Source: Pinibacter soli
GTDB lineage: Bacteria; Bacteroidota; Bacteroidia; Chitinophagales; Chitinophagaceae
Reading direction: 5' to 3'
Length of the DNA stretch: 64,000 nt
Assembly: GCF_029961145.1 (NCBI RefSeq)
Contig: NZ_JASBRG010000002.1
Location: 124,001 to 188,000, forward strand
Shown here: positions 1,267-63,159 of the stretch, one piece after another
How the letters are laid out: every line of letters begins with the position of its first letter
Position numbering within the stretch: position 1 is the stretch's first letter
Position numbers and translations under genes: made by a program
The notes under the pieces: model-generated
Databases searched by the model: none
Seen by the model: the letters and a program-made list of their open reading frames with translations, nothing else
Told to the model about the DNA's origin: nothing

Positions 1267-1427
1267 GCACGCAGATGACGCAGATTAAACTGATTTACAT
1301 TGATTTTCAAAACTGAATAACCGAGTAACTGAATAACTGAATGTTTATGTTCATCAGCGTCTTTAACTCGCAACACTCAGTTATTCAGTAATTCAGTAAT
1401 TTCTGCCAATCAGCTTCATCTGCGTGC
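1267..1427. repeat. Nested composite inverted repeat (two word families)
   Basis: Outer arms GCACGCAGATGA (1267-1278) and its exact complement (1416-1427). Inside them, tandem copies of the word TGAATAACTG (1313-1343) face the complementary series (1374-1400), with an 11-bp perfect core at 1330-1340/1377-1387. It lies between two divergent genes, so it cannot be simply a terminator. The right outer arm ends 8 nt before the tsaE -7 box. Confidence 0.8.
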
Positions 1428-1435
1428 TCACTGCC

Positions 1436-1443
1436 TATCTTTG
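1436..1443 (+). promoter_or_regulatory. Bacteroidota -7 box TATCTTTG for tsaE
   Basis: TATCTTTG fits the TAnnTTTG consensus exactly and ends 4 nt before the tsaE ATG at 1448. The transcript would be leaderless or nearly so. The short distance also supports the ATG at 1448 over the upstream in-frame GTG at 1424. Confidence 0.6.
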
Positions 1444-1447
1444 TACC

Positions 1448-1855
1448 ATGCAGCTGACATTTACATTGGATGAACTACCTGCAGTCGCAGAAAAATTCTG
1501 GCAGGAAAATGAGGGGAAAAAAGTCTTTTCCTTTCATGGCAACATGGGTGCAGGAAAAACAACTTTTATAATGGCACTGGCAAAGGCCAAAAAAGTAAAA
1601 AACACCATTAGCAGTCCTACCTATTCTATTATTAACGAGTATGGATACGACAGTGGGAAAATATACCACATGGACCTTTACCGGCTGAAAGACACTGAGG
1701 AAGCTATACAGGCAGGAGTGGAAGATGCCCTTTACAGCGGAAACATTTGCCTGGTAGAATGGCCGGAAAGAGCTGTGGAATTATTTCCGGACGACAATGT
1801 AAATGTTTACCTGGAAGTCGTTAACGGCTCAACACGTAATATTTCAATAAAATAG
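1448..1855 (+). CDS. tsaE: tRNA threonylcarbamoyladenosine biosynthesis ATPase TsaE
   Basis: P-loop ATPase that works with TsaB and TsaD to install threonylcarbamoyl on A37 of ANN-decoding tRNAs in the cytoplasm. The 135-residue protein shows the Walker A segment GNMGAGKTTF near residues 32-41, the family signature SSPTYSIINEY after it, and the HMDLYRL and LVEWPER motifs typical of TsaE. Length fits the family. The start at ATG 1448 is chosen because a -7 box lies immediately upstream and the family begins close to this Met. It is followed by ald 101 bp downstream; the tsaE-ald pair is, from memory, common in Bacteroidota. Confidence 0.95.
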   Translation: MQLTFTLDELPAVAEKFWQENEGKKVFSFHGNMGAGKTTFIMALAKAKKVKNTISSPTYSIINEYGYDSGKIYHMDLYRLKDTEEAIQAGVEDALYSGNICLVEWPERAVELFPDDNVNVYLEVVNGSTRNISIK

Positions 1856-1910
1856 ATTAGTTATTTTTGGAGTCGGGATAAATAAATACCCTGCATTCAG
1901 GAAGAAACTT

Positions 1911-1918
1911 TATGTTTG
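1911..1918 (+). promoter_or_regulatory. Candidate -7 box TATGTTTG for ald
   Basis: TATGTTTG matches TAnnTTTG and lies 38 nt upstream of the ald ATG. A second match, TATTTTTG, lies at 1862-1869. No clear -33 element was found, so which one is used is open. Confidence 0.4.
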
Positions 1919-1956
1919 ACTTCCCGTTTTTTTGAAAAATAAATGATTCTTGCCTC

Positions 1957-3171
1957 ATGGCGCAACAAAGACCACTTATAAGCACTTCTTTCAGCTACGA
2001 AACACTAGAAGAAACATTGGATGTTAAGCCCAAAGGCGAGTCAATCAGCATTGGTATCCCCAAGGAAACAGCCTTCCAGGAAAACCGCGTGGCACTAACT
2101 CCCGAAGCCGTAAGTGTTTTGGTAAGCAATGGCCACCACGTGTACATAGAGCATAACGCGGGAGATGCATCTCATTTTCGCGATAAAGAATACAGTGAGG
2201 CAGGCGGGAAGATCGTTTATAACAAAGAAGATATTTACAAAGCACCTATAGTAGTGAAATCTGCGCCGGTGGTGGAGGAAGATCTCCCCTACCTGCAAGC
2301 CGGCCAGGTCATCATTTCTCCAATGCACCTGAGCGTAATGAAATCTGAGTGGCTGGAAAAAATGATGGAAAAACGCATTACCGCATTGGCATTTGAACAC
2401 CTGAAGGATGACAGCGGCACATTACCTATCGTTCGCAGCATGAGCGAAATAGCGGGCAATGCCGTAATGTTGATTGCAGGGCAATATCTTGGTTCTGCCA
2501 ATCATGGGAAAGGTGTATTGCTCGGAGGCATTTCGGGTGTACCGCCAACAAAAGTCATCATCATTGGTGCTGGTGTTGTAGGAGAATATGCTGCAAGAGC
2601 GGCCCTCGCATTGGGCGCATCAGTGAAAGTTTTTGACAATAGCGTTTACAGATTAAAAAGACTGCAGAATAATATCGGCCAGCGTCTCTGGACCTCGGTT
2701 CTTGAGCCAAAAATTTTGGCGAAACAATTAAAAACCTGCGAGGTTGCGGTGGGTGCGCTTGGCTCAAACGGGGGAAGAACGCCAATCGTTGTTTCCGAAG
2801 AAATGGTGAGCAACATGCGTCCCGGCAGTGTGATCATTGACGTGAGTACAGACCGTGGCGGCTGTTTTGAAACTTCAGAAATCACCAGCCATGAGAACCC
2901 GATATTTATGAAATATGGCGTTATTCATTATGGCGTTCCCAATATTCCTTCAGGCTTTTCACGCACCGCTTCGCAAGCGATCAGCAACGTGTTGATGCCG
3001 TTGTTAATTGAGGCAGGAGATGCAGGAGGATTTGAAAACCTGATCTGGCACAAGGTAAATTTGCGCAGCGGCATTTATCTGTTCAAGGGCGCTCTTACCA
3101 ATTTCCACTTGAGCGAAAGATTTGACCTGAAATATACTGATCTGAATCTGTTGATTGCGAGCCAGCGTTAA
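1957..3171 (+). CDS. ald: Alanine dehydrogenase
   Basis: NAD-dependent enzyme interconverting L-alanine and pyruvate plus ammonia. The 404-residue protein has the AlaDh/PNT N-terminal domain with the GIPKET and ENRVALTP motifs (pyruvate-binding Arg about residue 44), the conserved SPMHLS segment near 121-126, and a Rossmann NAD domain with GAGVVG at 204-209 and an acidic residue at the end of the second strand (VKVFD). An N-terminal extension of about 30 residues relative to short bacterial Ald is typical of the Bacteroidota form as I recall it. The C-terminal region lacks the membrane domains of transhydrogenases, which argues against PntA. Confidence 0.9.
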   Translation: MAQQRPLISTSFSYETLEETLDVKPKGESISIGIPKETAFQENRVALTPEAVSVLVSNGHHVYIEHNAGDASHFRDKEYSEAGGKIVYNKEDIYKAPIVVKSAPVVEEDLPYLQAGQVIISPMHLSVMKSEWLEKMMEKRITALAFEHLKDDSGTLPIVRSMSEIAGNAVMLIAGQYLGSANHGKGVLLGGISGVPPTKVIIIGAGVVGEYAARAALALGASVKVFDNSVYRLKRLQNNIGQRLWTSVLEPKILAKQLKTCEVAVGALGSNGGRTPIVVSEEMVSNMRPGSVIIDVSTDRGGCFETSEITSHENPIFMKYGVIHYGVPNIPSGFSRTASQAISNVLMPLLIEAGDAGGFENLIWHKVNLRSGIYLFKGALTNFHLSERFDLKYTDLNLLIASQR

Positions 3172-3195
3172 ATCAAACAATTTTCCTTACTAGCT

Positions 3196-3227
3196 GTTAC
3201 CCTTTTGAAAAATAACAAAAGGGTAAC
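3196..3227. terminator. 12-bp perfect hairpin between ald and the 2H phosphoesterase gene
   Basis: Arms GTTACCCTTTTG (3196-3207) and CAAAAGGGTAAC (3216-3227) with the 8-nt loop AAAAATAA. No U-tract follows, so termination is plausible but unproven. The ATG of the next gene is only 9 nt downstream, so the hairpin could instead affect its translation. Confidence 0.5.
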
Positions 3228-3236
3228 GTTGCTAAC

Positions 3237-3806
3237 ATGAGCAGAGATCTCTACTTCATCGCCATCATTCCTCCACAAGATATTTGCGATGAAATAACAT
3301 CTTTCAAAATGGAAATTGCCAGTGACTACGATAGTCACAGAGCGCTGAAAGTTATTCCCCACATTACTTTAAAAGCGCCATTCAAAATGCCGGCAGCGCA
3401 TCACGCGGGACTGTTTAAATGGTTTAGCGAATTGTATGTTAACACAGGACCATTTACAATAGACCTTAACAATTTTGGGGCGTTTCACAACAAAAACAAT
3501 CCTGTGATATTTGTGCATCCGGTTATGAATGTACAATTGGCGGCCGTTCAAAAAGAGATCATTCGAAGTTTTCACAATCATTATCCGGAAATAACGATCA
3601 TGGATATCGAACACAAGTTTACACCACACATGACCGTTGCTTATCGTGATCTGGAATTTTCACGCTTCCAGGAAGCATGGAAAGTATATCATGACAAGGA
3701 ATACAAGAGAACGTTTACTGTAATTGATTTTCATTTGTTGCAGCATGACGGCGTGAAGTGGAATATTGCGGAGACGTACGGGTTAAGTAAAAATAAAAAA
3801 TTGTAA
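3237..3806 (+). CDS. 2'-5' RNA ligase / 2H phosphoesterase family protein
   Basis: Cytoplasmic protein of the 2H phosphoesterase superfamily (ThpR/LigT and YjcG relatives), which hydrolyse or ligate 2',5' or cyclic phosphodiester bonds in RNA. The 189-residue sequence has the two hallmark H-x-T/S-x motifs: HITL at about 42-45 and HMTV at about 131-134, each followed by a hydrophobic strand. The paired spacing of about 90 residues is normal for the fold. The physiological substrate is not evident. It is convergent with lpxD and separated from ald by a short hairpin. Confidence 0.85.
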   Translation: MSRDLYFIAIIPPQDICDEITSFKMEIASDYDSHRALKVIPHITLKAPFKMPAAHHAGLFKWFSELYVNTGPFTIDLNNFGAFHNKNNPVIFVHPVMNVQLAAVQKEIIRSFHNHYPEITIMDIEHKFTPHMTVAYRDLEFSRFQEAWKVYHDKEYKRTFTVIDFHLLQHDGVKWNIAETYGLSKNKKL

Positions 3807-3895
3807 GGCGAATCGCACTAGCCCTGTGATGCCATGAATGTGCAACAAAATATTCGGAGCAGCGCACATTTGTGTTGTGCCCCAAAAATGAAAAA

Positions 3896-3916: not shown

Positions 3917-3938
3917 CACAGATACACCGAAATATTAT

Positions 3939-6376: not shown

Positions 6377-6514
6377 ATTAATAATTAATAAAGAATAATT
6401 AATAAGACTACATTCGTTATAGGATGTTGCTATTTGCTTCTTTTTAAAAGACTTGTAACATTGCTTTGTCAGGGCCATCGCCCTATTAATTATTCTTTAT
6501 TAAATTATTAATTA
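6377..6514. repeat. TTAATAAAG-family inverted repeat, 20-bp perfect core
   Basis: Core arm TTAATAAAGAATAATTAATA at 6385-6404 is exactly complementary to 6484-6503, with an 80-nt loop. Flanking TAATTA repeats extend both arms imperfectly. The same 20-mer recurs exactly at 32875-32894. The right arm ends 8 nt before the porX ATG. Confidence 0.85.
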
Positions 6515-8081: not shown

Positions 8082-8117
8082 TTTGAAAATATGGGAATTT
8101 GAAATTTGAAAATTACT

Positions 8118-8217
8118 GGAACGCTGATTCTCATGATTTTTCAAGATTTTTTAGTCCAGTTAGTAACACAGACTCGGTTTTTTCAGATCATAATAATCAT
8201 GAAAATCTGCGTTCTCC
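8118..8217. repeat. GAACGCAGATTTTCATGATT-family inverted repeat
   Basis: Left arm from 8118 (GGAACGCTGATTCTCATG) and right arm AATCATGAAAATCTGCGTTC (8195-8214) are imperfect complements. The right arm is an exact complement of the 20-mer at 16481 and 60695. A separate run of the TTTGAAATTTGAAAA word starts at the porX stop codon (8079-8115). Confidence 0.8.
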
Positions 8218-8611: not shown

Positions 8612-8841
8612 AAATTTGAGGATTTGAAAATTTGAAAATGCTTTCTGTGCTTACTTACAAACAAGGTTATACAATCCGGATGAATTATTTAAATTTGAAA
8701 AGATAACTATTAACAAAAGGTGGATCACTACGATCCACCTTTTGTTTTTATGATTGGCTCCTCAGATTCATTTTGAATATTCAAGAAGTGCACAATATTT
8801 TTTACGGTTACGCAAAGAAAAAATTTTCAAATCCTCAAATT
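8612..8841. repeat. AATTTGAGGATTTG-family inverted repeat with 21-bp perfect arms
   Basis: Arms at 8613-8633 and 8821-8841 are exact complements, 187 nt apart, and enclose a conventional terminator hairpin. The 33-nt unit 8612-8644 recurs with one difference at 48771-48803 and in a slightly more diverged form near 37562-37592. The left arm begins 5 nt after the upstream stop codon. Confidence 0.85.
8712..8750 (+). terminator. Strong Rho-independent terminator
   Basis: A 15-bp perfect stem (8712-8726 with 8732-8746), loop ACTAC, GC-rich near the loop and followed by TTTTTA. Confidence 0.9.
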
Positions 8842-12250: not shown

Positions 12251-12342
12251 TAATTAAGAATTATCAATTAGGAATTAAGAATTGTAGCTGTGTGAACTAC
12301 TTTCTTATCTCTTGCATCCGGTGCATCACTAATTCCTAATTG
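12251..12342. repeat. AATTAAGAATT-family inverted repeat
   Basis: Arm CAATTAGGAATTA (12265-12277) is an exact complement of 12330-12342. Other members of this family are at 31562-31692, 35219-35349 and 50883-50918. The right arm overlaps the earliest possible TTG start of the next gene. Confidence 0.8.
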
Positions 12343-13343: not shown

Positions 13344-13435
13344 TGTGTACGGTGTACGAGATGTACGATGTACGAAAGTCATTACGCTAATAGCACCAAA
13401 AACATTTCGTACATCGTACTTCGTACACCGTACAT
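13344..13435. repeat. GTACGATGTACGAA-family inverted repeat
   Basis: Two perfect blocks: 13363-13377 with 13405-13419 (15 bp) and 13350-13359 with 13421-13430 (10 bp). Other members are at 61302-61388 and 62266-62335. A run of the GTTTTAAGTT word precedes the left arm. Confidence 0.85.
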
Positions 13436-15521: not shown

Positions 15522-15567
15522 CTTAAGTTATGAGTTTTAAGTTTTAAGTTAAAAGTTTTAAGTTAAA

Positions 15568-15656
15568 AGTAATAAGTTGTGAAAGAGGTCAAAAATTATA
15601 ACCAGAAGCTCTCGACATAGTTCAAAGCTGCGTTCTCAACTCACAACCTATTACTT
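15568..15656. repeat. TTTTAAGTTAAAAG-family inverted repeat between the two clpP genes
   Basis: AAGTAATAAGTTGTGA near 15568-15582 pairs with 15641-15656 with one mismatch. Tandem TTTTAAGTT words run from 15532 and complementary AAAACTT words end 3 nt from the clpP stop at 15673. A related pair of arms is at 42505-42659. Confidence 0.7.
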
Positions 15657-15672
15657 ACTACTTAAAACTTCT

Positions 15673-16480: not shown

Positions 16481-16644
16481 GAACGCAGATTTTCATGATT
16501 GTGATGATCAGATATGATTTAGAATTTTGAGATTGAAGATTCGAGATTGGGATCTACCGTTTGCGTGGCAAAGCATTTGGCTATCGGTACAAAAACTTTT
16601 ATTCAAATCGTAACAAATCATGACGATCATGAAAATCTGCGTTC
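16481..16644. repeat. GAACGCAGATTTTCATGATT inverted repeat
   Basis: Left arm 16481-16500 is the exact 20-mer; the right arm 16625-16644 is complementary over 19 of 20 positions. The TTGAGATTGAAGATT word fills part of the loop. It sits in the 288-bp gap upstream of clpP, which otherwise shows nothing coding. Confidence 0.85.
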
Positions 16645-17998: not shown

Positions 17999-18089
17999 GA
18001 ATAACTGAATGACTGAATAACTGAGTAGTCGAATTACTTAAATTGATTCACAAATTCAACCACTCAGTTATTTAGTCATTCAGTTATTC
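17999..18089. repeat. TGAATAACTG-family inverted repeat, 27 of 28 bp
   Basis: 17999-18026 and 18062-18089 are complementary at 27 of 28 positions, loop 35 nt. The right arm ends 2 nt before the dihydroorotase stop codon (18092-18094). Confidence 0.9.
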
Positions 18090-21169: not shown

Positions 21170-21228
21170 AAGTAAAAAGTAAAAAAGCGCGGTGATCCTG
21201 CAACAAAGCTTTTTACTTTTTACTTTTG
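21170..21228. repeat. AAGTAAAAAGT-family inverted repeat
   Basis: AAGTAAAAAGTAAAAAAGC from 21170 faces GCTTTTTACTTTTTACTT near 21208-21226. The right arm runs into TACTTTTG (21221-21228), an exact TAnnTTTG -7 box 26 nt before pepE, so the repeat may supply the pepE promoter. Confidence 0.75.
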
Positions 21229-21984: not shown

Positions 21985-22150
21985 TCATTGCGAGACCGGC
22001 GGAGCGTGAAGATCGAACCAGTAGTGAAAGTTTACATTTCGGAGACGAGGCGAAGCAATCTCATGCGTAAGGGGATTGCTTCGGCCACTTGCTGCTGTTC
22101 GATCTTGTTGTCGTAGTGCCGGTATTCTTTCTCCGCGGGCCTCGCAATGA
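21985..22150. repeat. Three-level nested palindromic element (CATTGCGAG / GAAGCAATC type)
   Basis: Three exact, properly nested arm pairs: TCATTGCGAG (21985-21994/22141-22150), GATCGAAC (22011-22018/22097-22104) and CGAAGCAATC (22051-22060/22074-22083). The right part corresponds, inverted, to the shorter element at 9700-9796. No reading frame spans it. The plus-strand neighbours are pepE and the UbiA gene. Confidence 0.85.
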
Positions 22151-24180: not shown

Positions 24181-24281
24181 TAAGTCAAGATCTTTTGATT
24201 TGATATTTGATATTGAAGAATTCCTCACATTTCAAATCTTAAATCTTAAATTTCAAATCATCAAAAATCATGACAATCTGC
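24163..24281. repeat. Repeat hairpin overlapping the 3' end of the polyketide synthase gene
   Basis: Left arm 24163-24181 matches the GAACGCAGATTTTCATGAT unit with one difference; right arm near 24265-24281 is its imperfect complement. An inner pair uses the TTTGATATTTGA / CAAATCTTAAATC word. This fills the 146-bp gap that separates the synthase from the methyltransferase. Confidence 0.8.
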
Positions 24282-24326
24282 CTGCCCGACTAGTCATTCA
24301 GGCGGGTGTTCTTTGTTAATATCAAA

Positions 24327-28473: not shown

Positions 28474-28613
28474 AGCACGCAGATGACGCTGATTGAATGG
28501 ATTTACGCTGATTTTTTAAAATAAACTGAATAACTGGTTGGTATGCAAACAAGCTGACGTTGGATATCGGAAAAATCTGCGCAGATCAGTCCAATCAGCG
28601 TCATCGGCGTGCT
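28474..28613. repeat. GCACGCAGATGACG-family inverted repeat
   Basis: 22-bp arms with one mismatch: 28474-28495 and 28592-28613. The loop carries a single TGAATAACTG word and an AAAAATCTGCGCAGAT stretch. It is the same outer word as at 1267-1278, again combined with TGAATAACTG inside. It fills part of the 272-bp gap before the next gene. Confidence 0.85.
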
Positions 28614-31458: not shown

Positions 31459-31561
31459 TACCGACACACTCCCTCTACAATTTCGCACTCCTCTAAAGTT
31501 GTGTTACGCACAGCTCAAGGCTTTATCTCCCCTATACTTTCTAAATTAATTAAGAATTGGC

Positions 31562-31692
31562 AATTAAGAATTAAGAATTCTTCGGGTGTTGCATTGCCCA
31601 TAATTGCAAAGTCAAAAAAAGACCAACAGTTTGGTCTTAATATTTTATCTGTGAGTCGCACAGAAGGCATTCTTAATTCTTAATTCCTAATT
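31562..31692. repeat. AATTAAGAATT-family inverted repeat enclosing a terminator
   Basis: 17-bp core arms 31562-31578/31669-31685. The loop contains AAGACCAA/TTGGTCTT (31619-31626/31631-31638), a small terminator between two convergent genes. The 26-nt right arm 31667-31692 is identical to 35324-35349. The right arm ends 7 nt before the stop codon at 31700. Confidence 0.88.
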
Positions 31693-32848: not shown

Positions 32849-32874
32849 ATGCAAGGATAATTAATAATTAATAA

Positions 32875-33015
32875 TTAATAAAGAATAATTAATAGGGCAA
32901 ACTGCTTGCGAAAATGTATCTGCCCATTTTTAGGAAACACAAAGTCTCCCTAAAAACGAAGCGCCATTCAGTCAAGAATGGCGCCCAATTAATTCTTAAT
33001 TATTAATTATTAATT
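32875..33015. repeat. TTAATAAAG-family inverted repeat overlapping the glutathione peroxidase stop
   Basis: The left arm contains the exact 20-mer seen at 6385-6404 (here 32875-32894). The right arm, 32987-33015, is an AATTATTAATT series that includes the last codon and stop of the peroxidase gene. An inner hairpin GCGCCATTC/GAATGGCGC (32961-32969/32976-32984) sits in the loop. Confidence 0.8.
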
Positions 33016-35218: not shown

Positions 35219-35349
35219 AATTAGGAATTAAGAATTCTCCATGTTCAATATTGCTTACTCTTAATAAGACCCAAAAGCCTAACTATTTTGATCTCTGTGT
35301 TTTATTGACGTGCCACACACAAAGCATTCTTAATTCTTAATTCCTAATT
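35219..35349. repeat. AATTAAGAATT-family inverted repeat
   Basis: 16-bp perfect core arms 35219-35234/35334-35349. The right arm (35324-35349) is a 26-nt exact copy of 31667-31692 and ends 4 nt before the comF stop codon at 35354. Confidence 0.88.
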
Positions 35350-36049: not shown

Positions 36050-36074
36050 GATGAATGATTTGAGAATTGAAATC

Positions 36075-36131
36075 TGAGATTTGAAATTTGGGCACTCAAA
36101 CTAAGTGACGTTGTCGCCAATTTCAAATCTC
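36075..36131. repeat. GAGATTTGAAATTTG-family inverted repeat between radA and comF
   Basis: GAGATTTGAAATTTGG around 36076-36091 pairs with CCAATTTCAAATCTC (36117-36131) with one extra base. The word is extended on both sides, and the right side reaches within 5 nt of the radA stop at 36148. A related pair is at 47488-47555. Confidence 0.8.
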
Positions 36132-36147
36132 AAATTTCAAATCGTAT

Positions 36148-37524: not shown

Positions 37525-38161
37525 GGAATAAAGATAAATGAGTGAACTGAACAATTTGAAAAATTGAGGATTTGAAAGATTGAAAATGCTTTGAATGCAT
37601 CCTTTTGAATTTATTATTTGTTCCCCGGATAGCTGAAGCAGTAATTTGAAAAATGAAACGCATGTCAAAAGGAATTTTCAAATTCCCATATTTTCAAATT
37701 AACACTTCATGATTACGATGAAAAAAGTTTTCATTGAACGAATGAATTGTTTTTAAAGAAAAATTTTTCAGGAAATCATAAACTCAAGAAGAGAAACTTT
37801 GTTTTTGAAGAGGAGAAATTGCGAAGAATAAAACTTGACTTTATACAAAGTAAAAGGGCCAGCAAAACTGCTGACCCCTTACTTACTAACCCATTAAATT
37901 CTTGCACTAAATTACAAATTAGCGCCACATAACAAAATTATTTTTTAACCCTGTGTATAACTTTTAGGATTTTGAAAGCCTTGTTTTTCATTATAAGAAA
38001 TTGATTTACAATTAATTAAAATTATGTCAAAATTTATCCGGAACCACGTCTTTGCCAAAATTGGCTAGAGGACGATCAAAACATGACAAAAAGTCACCAA
38101 ACTGCAGAGCCTTAAAAATGGCAGTCTTATTGATCATTCATTCATTAAAAATCAAGAGAAA
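37525..38161. other. 637-bp non-coding region
   Basis: The longest gap in the window. 37556-37592 and 37677-37701 are repeat arms of the GAGGATTTGAAA family. AGGGCCAGCA/TGCTGACCCCT (37855-37876) is a near-perfect hairpin that could end a transcript. TGTGTATAA at 37952-37960 is a single DnaA-box-like match in an AT-rich stretch. A 61-codon frame at 37747-37932 looks random in composition and is not called. Nothing else is recognisable. Confidence 0.6.
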
Positions 38162-38848: not shown

Positions 38849-38987
38849 AATTGAAAATTGAAAGTTGAAAATGAGTTCAGCGTTCAACTTTCAATTTTTT
38901 ATTGGAGCACCTTACCAGAACGAACATGGTTAAGGCAATTATCGTGAAACTGCACCAAAACAACTTTCAACTTTCAATTTTCAACTC
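38849..38987. repeat. TTGAAAGTTGAAAATG-family repeat with three arms
   Basis: AAAATTGAAAGTTGAA (38854-38869) pairs exactly with 38883-38898 after a 13-nt loop; a third complementary arm (38961-38985) lies further on and ends 3 nt before the HerA-like stop at 38989. The 26-nt stretch 38849-38874 is identical to 46891-46916. Confidence 0.88.
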
Positions 38988-42498: not shown

Positions 42499-42504
42499 AG
42501 GAAG

Positions 42505-42659
42505 TTTTGAGTTGTGAGTTGTGAGTTATAAGTAATGTGTAGTGAGTTCTGAGTTCTGAGTTTTGGGTTCTGAGCAATAAAGCCGCTGGCATCAAATGGC
42601 TTAGCGTACATGAGTTTTCAACCATTTTCCGCTACTCATAGCTCACCACTCATAACTTA
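42505..42659. repeat. GAGTTGTGAGTT-family repeat between kinase and phosphopantetheinyl transferase
   Basis: Left series of GAGTTNTGAGTT words (42505-42566) and right CTCATAGCTCACCACTCATAAC (42635-42656). Complementarity is imperfect. The right end overlaps the TAA of the transferase gene (42657-42659). Confidence 0.6.
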
Positions 42660-43930: not shown

Positions 43931-43983
43931 GAATGCACGCACTGTAGAGACGCGTTGAACGCGTCTCTACAGTGCGTGCATTC
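43931..43983. repeat. 26-bp perfect palindrome that encodes the end of the DUF3810 gene
   Basis: Arms 43931-43956 and 43958-43983 are exact complements around a single G. It contains GAGACGCGTT and TGCACGCACTG. The last codons (MHAL) and TAG stop of the minus-strand DUF3810 gene lie in the right arm. Confidence 0.93.
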
Positions 43984-45049: not shown

Positions 45050-45070
45050 GTTGATAAAAGTAAAAAATCA

Positions 45071-45231
45071 AAAGTAAAAAGTAAAAAAAGCAACTGTTAA
45101 TAACAGATAAATACATGAAGCGTCAAAAATATTGTACCATTCTTTGTAAGATGCTCATCAGGCAGATTGAACGTGGGCCGGCGCAAGGTGACTTTTTTCA
45201 TTTTGACTTTTGATTTTTTACTTTTTACTTT
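45071..45231. repeat. AAAGTAAAAAGT-family inverted repeat
   Basis: AAAGTAAAAAGTAAAAAA (45071-45088) and its exact complement (45214-45231), 18 bp. On the minus strand the left arm contains TACTTTTG (45069-45076), a -7 box 20 nt upstream of the DUF3810 start. The frame reading through the right arm upstream of the carboxylase gene is not coding. Confidence 0.85.
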
Positions 45232-46888: not shown

Positions 46889-46894
46889 GGAATT

Positions 46895-46963
46895 GAAAAT
46901 TGAAAGTTGAAAATGAAAAGCCTGTACACATTGTAAAGCTCCCATTTTCAACTTTCAATTTTC
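46895..46963. repeat. TTGAAAGTTGAAAATG inverted repeat, 21-bp perfect
   Basis: 46895-46915 and 46943-46963 are exact complements; loop 27 nt. The left arm starts 2 nt after the carboxylase stop and 46891-46916 is identical to 38849-38874. Confidence 0.92.
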
Positions 46964-47007
46964 CATTTTCCATTTTAATTACCTTCGCCGTCATAACATT
47001 TTTTGCA

Positions 47008-47481: not shown

Positions 47482-47487
47482 GCATTT

Positions 47488-47555
47488 GAGATTTGAAATG
47501 CTGAATGTGAATACACTCAAGAACTTGCATTAATCCAAATATCAAATCTCTAATT
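47488..47555. repeat. GAGATTTGAAAT-family inverted repeat
   Basis: GAGATTTGAAAT near 47488-47499 pairs loosely with ATCAAATCTC near 47541-47550. It starts a few nt after the rnhA stop codon. Confidence 0.6.
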
Positions 47556-47568
47556 TCAAATTATTCAT

Positions 47569-48694: not shown

Positions 48695-48702
48695 CAAAAG
48701 TA
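48695..48702 (-). promoter_or_regulatory. -7 box TACTTTTG for the DUF6580-like gene
   Basis: Exact TAnnTTTG match on the minus strand, 21 nt upstream of the ATG at 48673. Confidence 0.55.
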
Positions 48703-48770
48703 ATAAAAAAGGCTGTTAATCGGAAGGAAATGCGCGGATAACATTTGCGTGCATCATCTTGCCAATTTGA

Positions 48771-48803
48771 AAATTTGAGGATTTGAAAGTTTGAAAATGC
48801 TTT
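48771..48803. repeat. AAATTTGAGGATTTG arm, single
   Basis: A 33-nt unit with one difference from 8612-8644. No complementary arm lies in this gap, so it is an unpaired copy. Confidence 0.85.
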
Positions 48804-48854
48804 CATTCAACCCCTCTGACAGATTCCCGCTTTTCCCTCTCAAGAAGCTGACTA

Positions 48855-50106: not shown

Positions 50107-50484
50107 ATGTCCTATCACAATGAACTGGGAAAAACGGGAGAATTATTAGCCTTAAAGTATTTGGAGGAAAAAGGCTTTACGATTATAGAGCACAACTGGC
50201 GCCATGGCCGTTATGAAATCGACATTATCGCATCGATAAAAGACACTATTCACTTTATTGAAGTAAAAACAAGAAGTGGCAAGGCTTTCGGCCTGCCTGA
50301 AGAAAGTGTTTCTGCCGACAAAGTCAAAAGATTGTCCACTGCTGCAAATGCTTATTTACAAAAGAATAGAGGCTGGAAATGGGTGCAGCATGATATTCTT
50401 TCCATCACCATTGTTAATGCCCATGATCCTGAATTTTATTTTATACAAGATGTGTGGATAGGTGCGGGAAATGTGAGAATTTAA
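50107..50484 (+). CDS. UPF0102 family protein YraN
   Basis: The 125-residue protein has the restriction-endonuclease-like core of UPF0102: GKTGELLALKYLEEKG at the start and YEIDIIA...IHFIEVKTR as the metal and catalytic D/E-x-K residues. The family is predicted to be a nuclease; its cellular role is unknown. The start at ATG 50107 fits the family length. It is divergent from manA. Confidence 0.92.
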   Translation: MSYHNELGKTGELLALKYLEEKGFTIIEHNWRHGRYEIDIIASIKDTIHFIEVKTRSGKAFGLPEESVSADKVKRLSTAANAYLQKNRGWKWVQHDILSITIVNAHDPEFYFIQDVWIGAGNVRI

Positions 50485-50485
50485 T

Positions 50486-50577
50486 GTGGAGACGCATTGA
50501 ATGCGTCTCCACGCAATCAACGACGCCTCACAAATTTCTGAAACGCTGTATTTCGGGAGACGCGTTCAACGCGTCTC
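50486..50577. repeat. Two GAGACGC palindromes
   Basis: GTGGAGACGCATT/AATGCGTCTCCAC (50486-50498/50500-50512) around one G, and GAGACGCGTT/AACGCGTCTC (50557-50566/50568-50577) around one C. They lie between convergent yraN and zapA. The first starts 1 nt after the yraN stop. Confidence 0.9.
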
Positions 50578-50585
50578 TACGGAGA

Positions 50586-50876
50586 TTATTCCAATGCCTT
50601 ATCCAATGCACTTTCCAGCGATTGTAATTTTTGCAGCATTTCCCCTTCTACAATTTGCTGATTGGTTTGTGGAATTTGCAGCGTGGCATACCAAACCATT
50701 ACCATGGCTACGTAATCCTGCATGTCTTTACCGGCGAAGTTCGTTTTGAATTCGACAATTTTATCGTTGATAATTTTTACTGTATGCCTTACCGCTTCTT
50801 CATCTTTTGTATCGATCTTAATGCGATAGGTTCTGTCGCCGATGACTATGTTGATGGGAATGAGTTGATCTGACAT
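50586..50876 (-). CDS. zapA: Cell division protein ZapA
   Basis: The 96-residue protein binds and bundles FtsZ at the Z ring. It has the ZapA globular start (INIVIGDRTYRIKID), the EEAVRHTVKIINDKI helix and a C-terminal coiled coil from about 60. Length fits the short form. The neighbouring coiled-coil gene and pheT upstream form a conserved Bacteroidota order as I recall. The gene is separated from the next by a single-arm repeat. Confidence 0.9.
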   Translation of the reverse strand: MSDQLIPINIVIGDRTYRIKIDTKDEEAVRHTVKIINDKIVEFKTNFAGKDMQDYVAMVMVWYATLQIPQTNQQIVEGEMLQKLQSLESALDKALE

Positions 50877-50950: not shown

Positions 50951-51238
50951 CTACTCTTGCAGCATTGCTATGCATTTATCAATTTCTTTAAGGTATTGAT
51001 TAATGCGTTTTTCGAAGTCTTTTTTATCTTCTTCGCTCATGCCGCTTTTGGCCGCTTTTAAAAGCGACACCTGCTGGTTGAGCTCACCTATTTGCTGGTA
51101 TTGAATATTCTCTTTTTCCTTTAACAGGCTCAATTGCAATGAAAGTTTTTCATTTTCTTTTTGCAATGCGCTGTACTGCTTCACCAATTGCTGAAGTTTT
51201 TCTTGTATGCGCCTGATGTGTTCCTGTAGTGGTTCCAT
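50951..51238 (-). CDS. Coiled-coil protein next to zapA
   Basis: The 95-residue protein is almost entirely a coiled coil: heptads run from about 5 to 62 (IRRIQEKLQQLVKQYSALQK onward), then a short acidic linker and a second helix to the end. It resembles a ZapB-like partner of ZapA in size and context but sequence similarity cannot be claimed for such low-complexity sequence. It is co-directional with zapA and pheT. Confidence 0.8.
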   Translation of the reverse strand: MEPLQEHIRRIQEKLQQLVKQYSALQKENEKLSLQLSLLKEKENIQYQQIGELNQQVSLLKAAKSGMSEEDKKDFEKRINQYLKEIDKCIAMLQE

Positions 51239-51260: not shown

Positions 51261-51379
51261 AGTTGTTAGTTGATGGTTATTAGTTGTTAGACATTATGTG
51301 CTAACACTAAAAGCGTTTTGATACCATTGTTGTATATGACACTTAAAGTCCAACAACTAATAACCATCAACTAACAACT
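51261..51379. repeat. GTTAGTTGATGG inverted repeat, 28-bp perfect
   Basis: 51261-51288 and 51352-51379 are exact complements, loop 63 nt. The right arm ends 4 nt before the pheT stop codon (51384). A weaker copy of the word is at 60118-60212. Confidence 0.93.
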
Positions 51380-53854: not shown

Positions 53855-54037
53855 AATAACTGAATAACTGATTAACTGAATAACTGAAAGGAGCGTTTTG
53901 GGTCGACCTGGCGCTAAAAAGCACAATTAAATTAAATGTGGCAATTACCAAATCACTGAATAATTGAATAATTAAGACTTGAACGCAAAGTCGCGCTGGA
54001 AGCCTCAGTTATTCAGTTAATCAGTTATTCAGTTATT
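53855..54037. repeat. TGAATAACTG inverted repeat, 33-bp perfect
   Basis: 53855-53887 and 54005-54037 are exact complements, the longest paired arms of the window (loop 117 nt). The loop carries another copy of the word (53953-53972). The right arm overlaps the stop codon of the DUF3108 gene (54036-54038) by two bases. Confidence 0.95.
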
Positions 54038-57982: not shown

Positions 57983-58014
57983 GGTGATGTCGTTGAGTGT
58001 TATTCAAAATTAAT

Positions 58015-58183
58015 CGTGAATGGTGAATCGTCAATCGTGAATGGGTGTTTATTTTCGAAGTTTGAAAATTGTATTCGACCAGTAATGAAAAGAGCTTGCC
58101 ACTTTTTGATGACAAGCTCTTTGTTTTATTTTTTGAATGGTCAAATCTTAGAGACCTATTCACCTTTCGATTAACCATTCACG
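58015..58183. repeat. AATCGTGAATGG-family inverted repeat enclosing a terminator
   Basis: CGTGAATGGT (58015-58024) and ACCATTCACG (58174-58183) form the perfect core; tandem TCGTGAATGG words extend the left arm to 58047. The right arm ends 2 nt before the korA stop at 58186. Confidence 0.82.
58089..58127 (+). terminator. Terminator-like hairpin in the korA-HIT gap
   Basis: AAAGAGCTTG (58089-58098) and CAAGCTCTTT (58113-58122), loop 14 nt, followed on the plus strand by GTTTTATTTTT. The flanking genes are both on the minus strand, so its orientation is odd; on that strand it is preceded by A-rich and followed by TTTC. Confidence 0.55.
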
Positions 58184-58185
58184 AC

Positions 58186-60212: not shown

Positions 60213-60673
60213 TTCCCCAGCGCTGCAATAATCTCCTCGGCATGCTGCTTATTCTTCGGTCTCAAAAAGATCTTTTCGATCTTGCCCTTCTCGTCGATTA
60301 CAAAAGTTGTGCGGTGAAGTCCCATATATTTACGGCCATACAATTGTTTTTCACCCCATACGCCATATTTGTCAATGATTGCGCGACCTGTATCCGCAAT
60401 CAGCGTAAAAGGAAGCTGATGTTTCTCCCTGAATTTTATGTGCGATTTTTCGTCGTCCGGACTTACGCCGATGACCTCAAAGCCTTTTTGTTTTAACAGG
60501 CCGTAATTGTCACGAAGATTGCATGATTGTACGGTGCAGGTAGGCGTGAGATCCTGCGGATAAAAATACAATACCACTTTTTTGCCTTTAAAATCTGAAA
60601 GCGAAACTTTTTTACCGTCCTGATCAACTCCTGAAAATGCGGGAGCTTTATCCTCTTCTTGTAGATGCGTCAT
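60209..60673 (-). CDS. bcp: Thioredoxin-dependent peroxiredoxin, BCP/PrxQ type
   Basis: Cytoplasmic peroxidase of 154 residues that reduces hydroperoxides. Peroxidatic C46 and resolving C51 sit in LTPTCTVQSCNLRD, the 2-Cys atypical BCP pattern, with the GVSPDDEKSH segment and Arg in GLHRTTFVID. A -7 box (60678-60685) is 4 nt upstream of the ATG. It is the only member of this family in the window. Confidence 0.94.
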   Translation of the reverse strand: MTHLQEEDKAPAFSGVDQDGKKVSLSDFKGKKVVLYFYPQDLTPTCTVQSCNLRDNYGLLKQKGFEVIGVSPDDEKSHIKFREKHQLPFTLIADTGRAIIDKYGVWGEKQLYGRKYMGLHRTTFVIDEKGKIEKIFLRPKNKQHAEEIIAALGK

Positions 60674-60677
60674 GGCG

Positions 60678-60685
60678 CAAAATTA
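60678..60685 (-). promoter_or_regulatory. -7 box TAATTTTG 4 nt from the bcp start
   Basis: Exact TAnnTTTG match on the minus strand. The transcript would be leaderless or nearly so. Confidence 0.6.
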
Positions 60686-60694
60686 ACGAGAACG

Positions 60695-60714
60695 GAACGC
60701 AGATTTTCATGATT
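60695..60714. repeat. GAACGCAGATTTTCATGATT single arm
   Basis: Exact copy of the 20-mer at 16481-16500, with no partner arm in the gap. It lies 10 nt upstream of the bcp -7 box. A CTAACAACTAATAAC word follows at 60803-60817. Confidence 0.85.
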
Positions 60715-60840
60715 GTCATGAATTGAGAAGATTTTGTTTTTGAATTCATTTTAAAAAGAGCAACAATGATCTTTGAAAAAGAAGAAGGATCGATCCCCAG
60801 CCTAACAACTAATAACTAAATTGCAAGAAATACAATCACC

Positions 60841-61293
60841 ATGAAACGTCTAATATTTTTTGCAATGCCCGTAGTATTATTTGCCTGCGGCAACAATACT
60901 GAGCAACGCAAAGATGGATTTTCCCAAGCTCCTACAACAAAGGAAGATTCTTTGTATGAAGAAGTGATGAAAGGTCATGATATTGGAATGGCGGCTATGG
61001 GAAAAATCAAGGGATACCAGTCGCAGTCGCAGCATGCACTCGACAGCATTTCAAAATTGCCGAACCAGAAGCTGCAAGAGGCTTATAAGCAAAACGTATT
61101 GGCTGTTCAACAAGCGTTAAACAATGCAGATAGCAGCATGAATGAGTGGATGGAGAAATTCAGTCCCGATTCCTTTGCAAATGACAAGTCAAAAAGAGTG
61201 GAATATTTAGAATCAGAGAAAAATAAAGTGAACGACGTGAGACAAATGATTTTAGGGAGTTTAAAAAAGGCGGATTCGTTGTTTAAGAAATAG
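60841..61293 (+). CDS. Lipoprotein of unknown function
   Basis: The 150-residue protein has a lipoprotein signal (MKRLIFFAMPVVLFAC, Cys16) followed by GNN, and a helical, charge-rich remainder with coiled-coil character (about 35-148). Similar short Bacteroidota lipoproteins are common and uncharacterised. It stands alone. Confidence 0.78.
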   Translation: MKRLIFFAMPVVLFACGNNTEQRKDGFSQAPTTKEDSLYEEVMKGHDIGMAAMGKIKGYQSQSQHALDSISKLPNQKLQEAYKQNVLAVQQALNNADSSMNEWMEKFSPDSFANDKSKRVEYLESEKNKVNDVRQMILGSLKKADSLFKK

Positions 61294-61301
61294 GAAGCAA
61301 T

Positions 61302-61388
61302 GTACGGAGTACGATGTACGAAATTTCTTAGAGTGTAACACCTTAAAGTATTTCGTATATCGCACACCGTACCTCACACATCGTACAT
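61302..61388. repeat. GTACGATGTACGAA-family arms, imperfect
   Basis: Left GTACGGAGTACGATGTACG from 61302 and right TCGCACACCGTAC...CGTACAT to 61388; TACGAAAT/ATTTCGTA (61318-61325/61350-61357) is the perfect part. Confidence 0.7.
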
Positions 61389-61395
61389 CTTCCCA

Positions 61396-62193
61396 CTACC
61401 AACCGTCTCCATCAAGCATATTTCCCAACCCGCCGAGTATGCTACCTTCTTCTTTCCTGGTCGTTGTACCATAACTGAGAACGCGGCTTGCGAGCCTGCT
61501 GATTGGCAGCGTTTGTATCCACACTTTTCCCGGGCCGCGAAGAGTTGCGAAGAAAAGACCTTCACCACCAAACAATGTATTTTTTATACCGCCTACAAAT
61601 TGAATGTCGAAATCGATGCCCTGTGTGTACGCCACCAGACAACCGGTATCAAGTCTCAGCAATTCGCCCGGTTGAAGCGTGCGCTCAAACACGTGACCGC
61701 CGGCATGAACAAAAGCCATTCCATCACCTTCCAGTTTTTCCATAATAAAGCCTTCACCACCAAATATGCCGGTACCGAGTTTACGCTGGAATTCAATGCT
61801 GATGCTCACTCCTTTCGCTGCACACAAAAAGGCATCTTTCTGAGCAATAACCTTATTACCCAATTGTTTCAGATCGAGTGGAATAATTTTTCCGGGGTAC
61901 GGCGAAGCAAAACTCACATGCTTTTTGCCCATGCCAACGTTTGTAAAAGCCGTCATAAACAAGCTTTCACCTACAAGCATTCTTTTACCCGCAGAAAAAA
62001 GTTTGCCAAGCAAACCACTTCCCTGTTGTTGTGAGCCGTCGCCGAAAATGGTTTGCATTTGAATGCCATCTTCCATCATCATAAAAGCGCCACTTTCGCC
62101 GATGGCAGTTTCACCCGGGTCAAGTTCTATTTCTACATATTGCATTTCTTCTCCGTAAATGCGATAATCAATTTCATGATTGCTAATAGCCAT
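61396..62193 (-). CDS. AIM24/TIGR00266 family protein
   Basis: The 265-residue soluble protein has the AIM24-like double beta-sandwich: VEIELDPGETAIGESGAFMMM at the start, GGEGFIMEKLEGDGMAFVHAGG in the middle and LFGGEGLFFATLRGPGKVWIQT at the end, all family-typical. Members are of unknown function; a membrane-associated scaffolding role has been suggested for some. It is convergent with the lipoprotein gene. Confidence 0.9.
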   Translation of the reverse strand: MAISNHEIDYRIYGEEMQYVEIELDPGETAIGESGAFMMMEDGIQMQTIFGDGSQQQGSGLLGKLFSAGKRMLVGESLFMTAFTNVGMGKKHVSFASPYPGKIIPLDLKQLGNKVIAQKDAFLCAAKGVSISIEFQRKLGTGIFGGEGFIMEKLEGDGMAFVHAGGHVFERTLQPGELLRLDTGCLVAYTQGIDFDIQFVGGIKNTLFGGEGLFFATLRGPGKVWIQTLPISRLASRVLSYGTTTRKEEGSILGGLGNMLDGDGW

Positions 62194-62265
62194 GTTTTGT
62201 AAAGTTTAAATGGTAGACTAAAGGTATTACAAAGAAGAATTAAGTGCGCTGGATGTTTGATGTAC

Positions 62266-62335
62266 GGTGTACGAAGTATGATAGTGTTCGAGGTCTTACA
62301 TCCGAATTAACTTCGTACATCGTACTTCGTACACC
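62266..62335. repeat. GTACGAAGTA-family inverted repeat
   Basis: GGTGTACGAAGTA (62266-62278) and TACTTCGTACACC (62323-62335) are exact complements, 13 bp, in the gap between divergent genes. Confidence 0.85.
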
Positions 62336-62374
62336 TCCTGGGCATGGATTTTTAGTATTAACATAAAAGCAAAC

Positions 62375-63079
62375 ATGCCGGAAGGACCATCCATAGTGAT
62401 ATTGAAAGAAGAGGTGCAAGCATTTAAAAGAAAAAAGATCATTGCTGTAAGCGGCAATACAACGATCGATAAGGAACGAATGCTTAATCAAACGGTTGTT
62501 GATTTCAAGAGTTGGGGGAAACATTTTCTTATTTGTTTTAAAACGTTTTCGCTACGTATACATTTCATGCTGTTTGGCAGTTATAGAATCAATGAAAGAA
62601 AAGACGCACCGGTGAGATTGGGTCTTCAATTCACAAAGGGAGAGATCAATTTCTACACCTGCTCCGTTCAGTTTGTGGAAGGCGATGTAAACGACACTTA
62701 CGATTGGTCAGTCGATGTAATGAGTGACGAATGGAGCCCTACAAAAGCAAGAACTAAACTAAAAGCAAATCCAGACATGCTTGTTTGTGATGCTCTGCTA
62801 GACCAACATATTTTTTCCGGTGTTGGAAATATTATTAAGAACGAAGTACTGTTTCGAATTAAGGTGCATCCTGAAAGCAAAGTAGGCAATCTGCCACCCA
62901 AAAAACTTTCTGAACTTATTAAAGAAGCAAGGGTTTATTGTTTTCAATTTTTAGAATGGAAAAAAGCATTTGTACTTAAAACACATTGGCTCGCCCATAC
63001 TAAAAAGATTTGCCCGCGATCATGTTCCATTCATAAAAAAACATTTAGGCAAAACACACCGCAGGACGTTTTATTGTGA
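62375..63079 (+). CDS. Fpg/Nei-family DNA glycosylase with frameshifted zinc finger
   Basis: Base-excision repair glycosylase/AP lyase. The frame starts MPEGP (P2, E3 catalytic), contains the N-terminal beta-sandwich and the H2TH domain (DALLDQHIFSGVGNIIKNEV, about 150-170), then LAHTKKICPRSC. After CPR the read frame gives SCSIHKKTFRQNTPQDVLL and stops. In the +1 frame from 63024 the sequence continues VPFIKKHLGKTHRRTF, YCEMCQVRY and a TAA at 63099-63101, which is the expected zinc finger. A small indel near 63020-63023 has therefore moved the finger out of frame. The intact gene would run to 63101. Confidence 0.88.
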   Translation: MPEGPSIVILKEEVQAFKRKKIIAVSGNTTIDKERMLNQTVVDFKSWGKHFLICFKTFSLRIHFMLFGSYRINERKDAPVRLGLQFTKGEINFYTCSVQFVEGDVNDTYDWSVDVMSDEWSPTKARTKLKANPDMLVCDALLDQHIFSGVGNIIKNEVLFRIKVHPESKVGNLPPKKLSELIKEARVYCFQFLEWKKAFVLKTHWLAHTKKICPRSCSIHKKTFRQNTPQDVLL

Positions 63080-63099
63080 GATGTGCCAGGTGAGGTATT

Positions 63100-63159
63100 A
63101 AGTCAAAAACTTTGAATGTAACTCCTTTTCAAGAATGTAACACTCAAAGTTTTTGACTT
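63100..63159. repeat. AAGTCAAAAACTTTGA inverted repeat
   Basis: 63100-63115 and 63144-63159 are exact complements, 16 bp, loop 28 nt. The left arm overlaps the TAA that would end the intact glycosylase. Confidence 0.88.

What the first reader, a model, noticed from the sequence alone, without database searches (positions are those of the whole stretch)
1267..63159. Window-wide system of intergenic inverted repeats built from short repeated words
Most intergenic gaps contain a pair of complementary arms separated by about 1-190 nt, and each arm is itself a near-tandem array of a short word. At least ten word families are present: TGAATAACTG (1313, 17999, 40646, 53855), AATTAAGAATT (12265, 31562, 35219, 50883), TTAATAAAG (6385, 32875), TTTGAGGATTTG (8613, 37562, 48771), TTGAAAGTTGAAAATG (38854, 46895), GTACGATGTACGAA (13350, 61302, 62266), AAGTAAAAAGT (21170, 45071), GTTAGTTGATGG (51261, 60118), GAACGCAGATTTTCATGATT (8195, 16481, 24163, 60695), GAGACGC palindromes (43931, 50486) and TCGTGAATGG (58015). 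Perfect arms reach 33 bp. Unrelated words share the same architecture, which suggests one process makes or maintains all of them. I know no named element with these features. They may be non-autonomous mobile hairpins, RNA 3' structures, or products of template switching.
Basis: seen in the sequence. Interest (0 to 1): 0.85.

Follow-up and report, generated by a model that had tools for sequence, protein, structure and literature searches.

The report
Genus-wide intergenic hairpins of 7-9-base words
In one genus of soil bacteria, many gaps between genes carry a hairpin whose two arms are runs of a 7-9-base word, and related species often keep a hairpin in the same gap, just after a stop codon, while exchanging the word or the loop.

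Summary
The window (a Pinibacter-like Chitinophagaceae genome) has 29 strong inverted repeats in 49 gaps, against 0.075 expected in shuffles and none in 26 chosen coding blocks. Hairpins lie a median 6 nt from stop codons and 31 nt from start codons. They are not T-tract terminators, Rfam families or RAYT-linked REPs.

Two syntenic relatives show how they evolve. In 129 ortholog-gap comparisons with periodic hairpins in both species, 78 share the word, 31 have a related and 20 an unrelated one. No precise empty site was found for a periodic hairpin. In G001 one 61-nt loop with TTGAGAG arms has spread (42 matches; 11 and 3 in the relatives). Six of its sites gave 12 ortholog comparisons: ten already hold TTGARAR-armed hairpins with other loops (nine strong, one weak), none is empty. 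I read this as replacement between dispersed hairpins guided by arm homology, plus slippage and template switching; direction is resolved at two sites only.

Paired tandem heptamers/octamers are in print for Geobacter metallireducens, and REPINs are similar: a new variant of a known kind.

The parts
1267..1427 (.). CACGCAGATGACGCAGATT hairpin (period 9) enclosing a GAATAACT hairpin (period 8; arms 1328-1345/1372-1389)
6385..6503 (.). AATTAAT hairpin (period 7), divergent gap, arms 6385-6404/6484-6503
   Evidence: same word in G001, other sequence in G002
8119..8214 (.). GCAGATTTTCATGATT-type hairpin (period 9) beside a left-over ATTTGAAA array (8082-8113); G001 has an ATTTGAAA hairpin here
8613..8841 (.). 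ATTTGAAA hairpin (period 8), arms 8613-8633/8821-8841; 3' arm inside a called ORF start
12265..12342 (.). AATTAAG/AATTAGG array pair, weaker (score 13)
13346..13434 (.). GTACGAT hairpin (period 7), arms 13346-13377/13405-13434
   Evidence: same word in both relatives
15553..15670 (.). AGTTTTA hairpin (period 7)
16481..16644 (.). CGCAGATTTTCATGATT hairpin; the same gap holds a TTGAGAG hairpin in G001 and a TTGAAAG hairpin in G002
17999..18089 (.). GAATAACT hairpin (period 8); same word in both relatives
21170..21225 (.). AAGTAAA hairpin (period 7)
21985..22150 (.). TCATTGCGAG palindromic repeat, not periodic
28474..28613 (.). CGCAGATGACGCTGATT hairpin (period 9), 43-nt arms
31555..31692 (.). 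AATTAAG hairpin (period 7); AATTAAT in G001, AATTAGG/AATTAAG in G002
32866..33015 (.). AATTAAT hairpin; G002 has AATTAGG/AATTAGA at the same bounds
35219..35349 (.). AATTAGG hairpin; AATTAAT in G001, GCGTTAGGC in G002
36067..36140 (.). ATTTGAA hairpin; GTTAGTT-type hairpin in both relatives
37553..37700 (.). ATTTGAAA array pair, weaker (score 13), across a called ORF start
38851..38984 (.). TTGAAAG hairpin; loop shared with G002 (76%), while G001 has the TTGAGAG element with the 61-nt loop
40654..40733 (.). GAATAACT hairpin
42503..42574 (.). AGTTCTG array (period 7, 10 copies), no partner arm of score >=12
43933..43981 (.). GAGACGC palindrome, not periodic
45056..45225 (.). AGTAAAA hairpin (score 24); the 3' arm lies inside a called ORF start
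46891..46967 (.). TTGAAAG hairpin, 25-nt arms, across a called ORF start
50489..50577 (.). pair of GAGACGC palindromes; ~101-nt unit cleanly absent in G002
51261..51379 (.). GTTAGTT hairpin, 40-nt arms
53855..54037 (.). GAATAACT hairpin, perfect 33-nt arms; GCGTTTAGC word in G002
58014..58184 (.). GTGAATC hairpin (period 7)
61302..61372 (.). GTACGAT hairpin; CACAGAGAA (period 9) hairpin in G001
62266..62335 (.). GTACGAA hairpin, divergent gap
63100..63159 (.). AAGTCAAAAA hairpin, arms not clearly tandem

Best explanation
These are copies of a genus-specific, multi-family population of non-autonomous intergenic hairpin repeats. Each is a pair of inverted arms, an arm being a few near-tandem copies of a 7-, 8- or 9-nt word, around a loop of a few to about 200 nt. 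They occupy slots that mostly begin right after stop codons. I propose three processes. (1) Unit slippage lengthens and homogenises an arm. (2) Fold-back template switching keeps the two arms complementary. (3) A whole hairpin (arms plus loop) overwrites another hairpin elsewhere, mostly one with the same or a related word, by ectopic recombination or copying through arm homology. Step 3 would explain why gaps keep a hairpin while word and loop change, why each species has its preferred spelling, and why precise empty sites are rare. Shown: the architecture, the period, the slot, kept pairing, word exchange at fixed gaps, and one loop at many dispersed G001 loci, six of which have orthologs that already hold hairpins. 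Inferred: the recombination route, the direction of copying (polarised at two sites), and that slippage and template switching are the local processes.
For: Architecture and chance. Slot: median 6 nt from the stop side (73% within 15 nt, n=199) against 31 nt from the start side (26%, n=139), over gaps with exactly one periodic hairpin, three species pooled. Pairing kept: 57 double compensatory changes among 1,864 arm pairs in 80 comparisons. Word exchange: 454 pairwise ortholog-gap comparisons (up to three per gap) gave 251 with none, 74 with one only, 78 same, 31 related and 20 unrelated words. Spelling by species: TTGAAAR x3 has 335/362/879 exact matches in G000/G001/G002, TTGAGAG 7/285/48 (overlapping units, not hairpins). 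Loop copying: a sequence-only model of the 61-nt-loop element has 42 matches in G001, 11 in G002, 3 in G000 and 0 in G062 at E<=1e-3, some places counted on both strands and only 150 first-look candidates scored per genome; 20 copies align, 16 of them from G001. Replacement: 6 G001 sites, 12 comparisons: 10 TTGARAR-armed hairpins with other loops (9 at score >=14, one at 11), 1 the same element (G002), 1 a GTTAGTT pair of score 11 (G000), 0 empty. G001 and G002 are sisters (89.6% vs 85.9-86.0%). At two sites G000 and G002 share TTGAAAG arms and an alignable loop (window 38851-38984; G001:C1:355908), so the G001 state is derived there. Another core, GCTCTGCAAGG, lies in a gap with a GAATAACT hairpin at all 6 places found in the gap set (forward-strand exact word).
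Against: Loops of most word families are not detectably related between loci by simple alignment. Loop BLAST gives 76, 18 and 21 related pairs in G001, G000 and G002 (0 in shuffles), but a good part are nested repeats sharing the same DNA, and 30, 6 and 6 join different families. So copying of whole hairpins is shown for a few subfamilies only. Replacement by unrelated words is not clearly above what gap length alone allows (18 Fisher tests, uncorrected p 0.01 to 1). 74 of 454 comparisons have a hairpin in one species only. No junction shows a conversion-tract mosaic. CGCAGATT-type hairpins look inserted beside remnants of ATTTGAAA arms, and at W223971 a 361-nt indel holds an ATTTGAAA hairpin absent from G000, which keeps only its 3' arm; both fit insertion or deletion as well. 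Word families were assigned by hand-made patterns with some errors, e.g. the G001 AATTAAT hairpin at W130281 was labelled GAATAACT.
Confidence: 0.45

Rival explanations
1. REPIN/MITE-like elements: an enzyme encoded elsewhere recognises the hairpin and moves whole copies into new gaps, favouring 3' ends or existing hairpins. Old copies decay and are deleted.
For: Inverted doublets with variable spacer, extragenic, hundreds of copies, nested hairpins; dispersed copies of one loop; three Y1_Tnp genes in G000. A non-periodic relative (the GAGACGC pair) shows a clean presence/absence.
Against: No precise empty site for a periodic hairpin. Y1_Tnp occurs in 23 of 29 genomes, including genomes with 5-9 matches and 0-1 TTGAAAR arrays. 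The palindrome beside the best RAYT-like gene in L001 is a CTACGGAGC type, not a periodic word (by eye). Many unrelated words would need many recognitions or a purely structural one.
Confidence: 0.29
2. Purely local mutation: a chance palindrome is perfected by fold-back template switching and lengthened by unit slippage, independently at each gap.
For: Arms co-vary; both arms change word together at fixed bounds (window 32866-33015); one-sided expansion to long (CTCAACT)n arms in G001. Template switching as maker and maintainer of stems is published (PMC8794818, outline and abstract read).
Against: The same words recur in hundreds of places and are almost absent from other genera sampled; a related 61-nt loop at many loci.
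Confidence: 0.1
3. Selected RNA or DNA signals: a hairpin after the stop codon is needed (3'-end protection, or a site for a protein binding 7-8-nt spaced units), and any word that folds will do.
For: Slot next to stop codons and convergent > tandem > divergent occupancy (17 of 35, 34 of 99, 7 of 29 in G000); pairing kept; 17 of 19 hand-defined periodic families have a G-richer 5' arm (my tally). Regulatory readings were proposed for similar arrays (PMC2700814, PMC4679880).
Against: About a quarter of divergent gaps have them too; T-tract after only 10 of 210; about half of gaps have none; the word tested is absent or rare (0-6 matches) in 152 other family genomes. Convergent against divergent gives p 0.07, 0.02 and 0.01, tandem against divergent is not significant.
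Confidence: 0.13

Closest known systems
Geobacter metallireducens 'putative global regulator binding sites' classes 1-3 (PMC2700814; section 14 and passages incl. figure legends read)
   Same: Tandem octanucleotides (GTTGCTYN x4), TCTCCGTS x3 or heptanucleotides (MTYCTGA x5), paired on opposite strands, at variable distance for classes 1 and 2, dispersed.
   Different: Three word classes with 16-48 sequences aligned per class there; here about 19 hand-defined word families and hundreds of copies, with ortholog replacement. Interpreted there as possible IHF/HU sites without test in the text read.
TAACTGA heptamer arrays of Beggiatoaceae, Cyanobacteria and Bacteroidetes (PMC4679880; abstract and sections 3, 10 read)
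   Same: Intergenic short-word arrays, patchy distribution, mixed words in some genomes; a related word (GAATAACT arrays contain TAACTGA).
   Different: Direct repeats, in the BOGUAY genome mostly upstream of start codons with one indirect repeat; here inverted pairs next to stop codons, period 8 for this word.
REPINs (PMC3116915; passages read)
   Same: Inverted doublets with spacer forming hairpins, extragenic, high copy, clusters formed by insertion into or next to other REPINs.
   Different: REPIN arms are non-periodic REPs linked to a RAYT; here arms are word arrays, no RAYT link was found, and slots are re-occupied.
Cyanobacterial STRR heptamer repeats (recalled, not read)
   Same: Heptanucleotide arrays in intergenic DNA.
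   Different: Inverted pairing not part of the definition, as I recall it.
Template-switch hairpins (PMC8794818; outline and abstract read)
   Same: Mechanism that makes and mends perfect stems.
   Different: Concerns stems at their own loci; no dispersal in the part read.

Membership tests
REP/REPIN | inverted doublet able to form a hairpin, extragenic, high copy | tested here: met
REP/REPIN | GTAG- or CGTC-tagged palindrome at the arm end | tested here: inconclusive
   none of 29 5' arms listed begins with GTAG or CGTC; flanks not scanned. A G001 GAGACGC arm begins GTAGAGACGCG
REP/REPIN | linked RAYT gene whose presence tracks the repeats | tested here: not met
   no strong inverted repeat in L001, one each without periodic arms in L002 and L003 (about 3.2 kb each); Y1_Tnp count does not track the words
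MITE (non-autonomous DNA transposon) | precise empty sites or target duplications | tested here: not met
   one search listed five indel rows: two for one GAGACGC event, one GGTTCGTG, one ACCTGACAGG with poor flanks, one ATTTGAAA hairpin whose 3' arm stays behind in G000; none is hairpin-only for a periodic hairpin
Intrinsic terminators | stem followed by a T-tract in the sense of the upstream gene | tested here: not met
   10 of 210 with >=6 T in 8 nt
Rfam structured RNA | match above gathering score | tested here: not met
   9 matches at E<=1, none above its gathering score
Paired tandem heptamer/octamer sites (G. metallireducens) | tandem 7/8-mers paired on opposite strands at variable distance, dispersed | tested here: met
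   against legends; sequences not compared
Paired tandem heptamer/octamer sites (G. metallireducens) | IHF/HU binding | not testable with these tools
   proposed without a binding test in the text read
Heptamer direct-repeat arrays (TAACTGA/STRR) | period exactly 7, direct repeats without inverted partner | tested here: not met
   periods 7, 8 and 9; arms paired

The most novel reading that the evidence does not exclude
Intergenic hairpins of this genus are exchangeable cassettes in fixed slots: the arms, made of short repeated words, serve as addresses through which a hairpin is overwritten by another one from elsewhere in the genome. Words, spellings and loops then spread by concerted evolution without a dedicated transposase, while the slot after the stop codon keeps a hairpin.
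Probability: 0.33. Interest if true: 0.8.

Novelty: new variant of a known kind. Interest (0 to 1): 0.6.

Why it matters
Short palindromic repeats are common in bacterial genomes, yet how they spread is only partly understood; gene conversion was raised as an explanation for REPs in 1988 (title seen in the reference list of PMC3116915). Here one genus holds, by extrapolation from 71 inverted repeats in 228 kb, roughly 1,500-1,800 such hairpins per genome in a regular word grammar. Three syntenic species show the slot kept and the word or loop exchanged. That makes arm-guided replacement directly testable by strain sequencing and by a marked-loop transfer assay. It also warns that compensatory changes and fixed position need not mean a selected RNA.

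Tried and rejected
RAYT as driver: rejected. SbcCD loss as specific cause: SbcD is below cut-off in G000-G002 and G062, but also in 16 of 20 other genomes tested, so it is permissive at most. Intrinsic terminators: rejected. Rfam: nothing above gathering; I take the sub-threshold miRNA-family scores to reflect long stems. Simple loop alignment within word families: no signal for most, which first led me away from copying; the G001 61-nt loop came from reading loops by eye and then a profile. Internal covariation of that loop: suggestive with 6 copies (2 double-changed pairs), gone with 20 (RNAalifold keeps only the arms), so not claimed. A misreading corrected: my notebook takes the many partial hits for CGCAGATT elements with related loops; one search shows that the query part is an AATTAAT hairpin, whose near-identical arms can account for much of the 71-76% identity over ~135 nt, so I do not use it as evidence of loop copying. 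The backward-pattern control is not valid, because a pure TTGAGAG array matches it too. A link of the 7-nt spacing to Rho or S1 binding was considered and dropped for lack of a test. Distribution: 75 of 80 Bacteroidota loci have no periodic inverted repeat; the TTGAAAR word is in 20 of 156 family genomes, with more than 6 matches only in G000-G002 and G062, and in 15 of 198 phylum genomes including G000, the other 14 with 1-4 matches.

Print searches (PubMed Central open-licence set only). No title or abstract start listed there described this in Pinibacter; one search found 3 papers holding the genus name, seen as listing only. Subscription papers were not searched.
Full report
WHAT IS THERE. 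The window is G000:C6:124001-188000 of a 5.91-Mb genome. With a simple inverted-repeat finder I found 29 repeats of score >=14 in 49 gaps, against 0.075 in dinucleotide shuffles and 0 in 26 chosen coding blocks; two of the 49 stretches were added by hand because they held repeats. A scan of the whole window gives 31, three of them inside called ORFs. Another 240 kb of the same genome gave 71 more outside ORFs and 8 inside. The arms are near-tandem arrays: period 7 or 8 for most words, about 9 for the CGCAGATT, CGGATT, CACTAAGG, CACAGAGA and CGCAAAGG words. In the 228-kb G000 stretch 34 of 71 5' arms reach tandem score 8, against 3.2 expected.

POLARITY AND PLACE. Among periodic hairpins of the three-species set, 142 have a G-richer 5' arm, 25 a C-richer one and 13 neither; non-periodic ones are 19 against 16 with 8 neither. 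By hand-defined word family I count 17 of 19 with positive mean skew. The rows include orthologs, so the family count is the fairer unit. The hairpin end lies a median 6 nt from the adjacent stop codon (n=199) and 31 nt from a start codon (n=139), in gaps with exactly one periodic hairpin. Occupancy in gaps >=60 nt is highest between convergent genes (17 of 35, 18 of 29, 17 of 26 in G000, G001, G002), lower in tandem gaps (34 of 99, 36 of 89, 30 of 88) and lowest in divergent ones (7 of 29, 8 of 28, 7 of 24). Convergent against divergent gives p 0.07, 0.02, 0.01; tandem against divergent is not significant.

COMPARISON OF SPECIES. G001 and G002 are syntenic with the window at about 82-92% per block. 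Over a 228-kb G000 region 156 and 150 of 176 gaps have an ortholog in G001 and G002. In 454 pairwise comparisons, 251 lack periodic hairpins in both, 74 have one on one side only, and 129 have them in both: 78 with a shared word, 31 related, 20 unrelated. Families were assigned by hand-made patterns, with some mislabelling. Examples: window 36067-36140 is ATTTGAA in G000 but GTTAGTT in both relatives; 16481-16644 is CGCAGATT, TTGAGAG and TTGAAAG in the three; 53855-54037 is GAATAACT in two and GCGTTTAGC in G002. Tests that unrelated words re-occupy the same gap beyond gap length give uncorrected p between 0.01 and 1 in 18 strata, so that part is suggestive only.

PAIRING IS KEPT. In 80 same-word ortholog comparisons, 1,643 of 1,864 pairs are identical, 57 changed on both sides and still pair, and 164 changed on one side or broke. 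If arms changed independently I estimate about 4 double changes (my arithmetic). Alignment of periodic arms is partly ambiguous, and both species were selected for having a repeat. Concerted change of both arms at fixed bounds is plain at 32866-33015.

COPYING BETWEEN LOCI. The word TTGAAAR x3 has 335, 362 and 879 exact matches in G000, G001 and G002, and 0-4 in each of 26 other relatives; TTGAGAG has 7, 285 and 48. In G001 a subfamily with TTGAGAG arms has a related 61-nt loop at six places in 640 kb; the profile finds no such loop in 228 kb of G000 and 240 kb of G002 (best E 2.7 there). A sequence-only model finds 42 matches in G001, 11 in G002, 3 in G000 and 0 in G062, some of them the same place on both strands, with 150 first-look candidates scored per genome. 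20 copies were aligned: 16 from G001, 3 from G002, 1 from G000. I located the orthologs of six G001 copies in G000 and G002. Of the 12 comparisons, ten hold TTGARAR-armed hairpins with other loops (nine at score >=14; the G000 one at C1:183745 only at 11), one (G002, ortholog of C1:397736) holds the same element, and one (G000, same site) a GTTAGTT pair of score 11. TTGARAR hairpins are only 7 of 71 and 10 of 75 repeats in the G000 and G002 sets. G001 and G002 are sisters, and at two sites G000 and G002 share arms and an alignable loop (76% at window 38851-38984, against a mean of 60% over all same-word comparisons; G001:C1:355908 by eye), so replacement happened on the G001 branch there. At the other four sites the order is not resolved. 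A second shared core, GCTCTGCAAGG, lies in gaps with GAATAACT hairpins.

WHAT IT IS NOT. No precise empty site was found for a periodic hairpin in the three-way set (only gap pairs with a suitable length difference and under 1,200 nt aligned). The nearest case, a 361-nt indel with an ATTTGAAA hairpin at W223971, leaves the 3' arm in G000. Y1_Tnp genes are in 23 of 29 genomes without tracking the words. T-tracts follow 10 of 210 hairpins. Rfam gives nothing above gathering. SbcD is missing by cut-off in the hairpin-rich genomes and in most hairpin-poor ones.

READING. I favour a population of hairpin repeats that spreads mainly by overwriting other hairpins through arm homology, with slippage and fold-back template switching as local upkeep. 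Transposition of a REPIN/MITE kind into or beside existing hairpins, followed by loss of the old copy, is the main rival and is not excluded.

KNOWN RELATIVES. Paired tandem octamers and heptamers on opposite strands were listed as putative global regulator sites in Geobacter metallireducens (PMC2700814). TAACTGA arrays occur in Beggiatoaceae, Cyanobacteria and some Bacteroidetes (PMC4679880). REPINs are inverted doublets with spacer (PMC3116915). The architecture is therefore not new. The many-word system, its stop-codon slots and the replacement pattern are what I did not find in print with the searches named under Tried and rejected.

Noticed in passing
window 24278-24305; also G002 orthologs of gaps 15522-15672 and 48698-48854, G001 ortholog of gap 47482-47568: A ~26-nt REP-like palindrome (CCTGCCCGAC..TTCAGGCGGG) sits at or inside word arrays; at the 48698 ortholog of G002 it interrupts an ATTTGAAA array that is continuous in G000.
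   Followed up: partly
window 50479-50585: A ~101-nt unit of two GAGACGC palindromes is present in G000 and G001 and cleanly absent in G002.
   Followed up: partly
W 33602, 36548; G1 18017; G2 12314, 15340, 86149 (script coordinates): A ~110-nt structured core (GCTCTGCAAGGCTTG...) occurs at all six found places in gaps holding GAATAACT hairpins; the four G002 copies found by loop BLAST are about 80-93% alike.
   Followed up: partly
L001 1180-1350: The best Y1_Tnp/RAYT-like gene of G000 is flanked by CTACGGAGC-type palindromes (by eye), a different repeat family.
   Followed up: no
L045 (Chitinophagaceae bacterium DXS); G062: DXS has TTGAAAG- and GTACGAT-type hairpins at lower density (3 per 22 kb); G062, probably the same species by size, has 71 TTGAAAR matches.
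   Followed up: partly
G001:C1 142792-142906, 183840-183905, 356003-356117: Very long pure (CTCAACT)n 3' arms, far longer than the 5' arms: one-sided unit expansion.
   Followed up: no
G001:C1 about 181202-181340 and about 19 dispersed places in G000 and G002 (listed part): AATTAAT hairpins align over ~135 nt at 71-76% between dispersed places; whether the loops are related beyond the arms was not tested.
   Followed up: partly
window 50586-50876 (-), 50951-51238 (-): Two small ORFs (ZapA-like by eye, and a coiled-coil-like protein) inside what a 100-aa cut-off calls one long gap.
   Followed up: no
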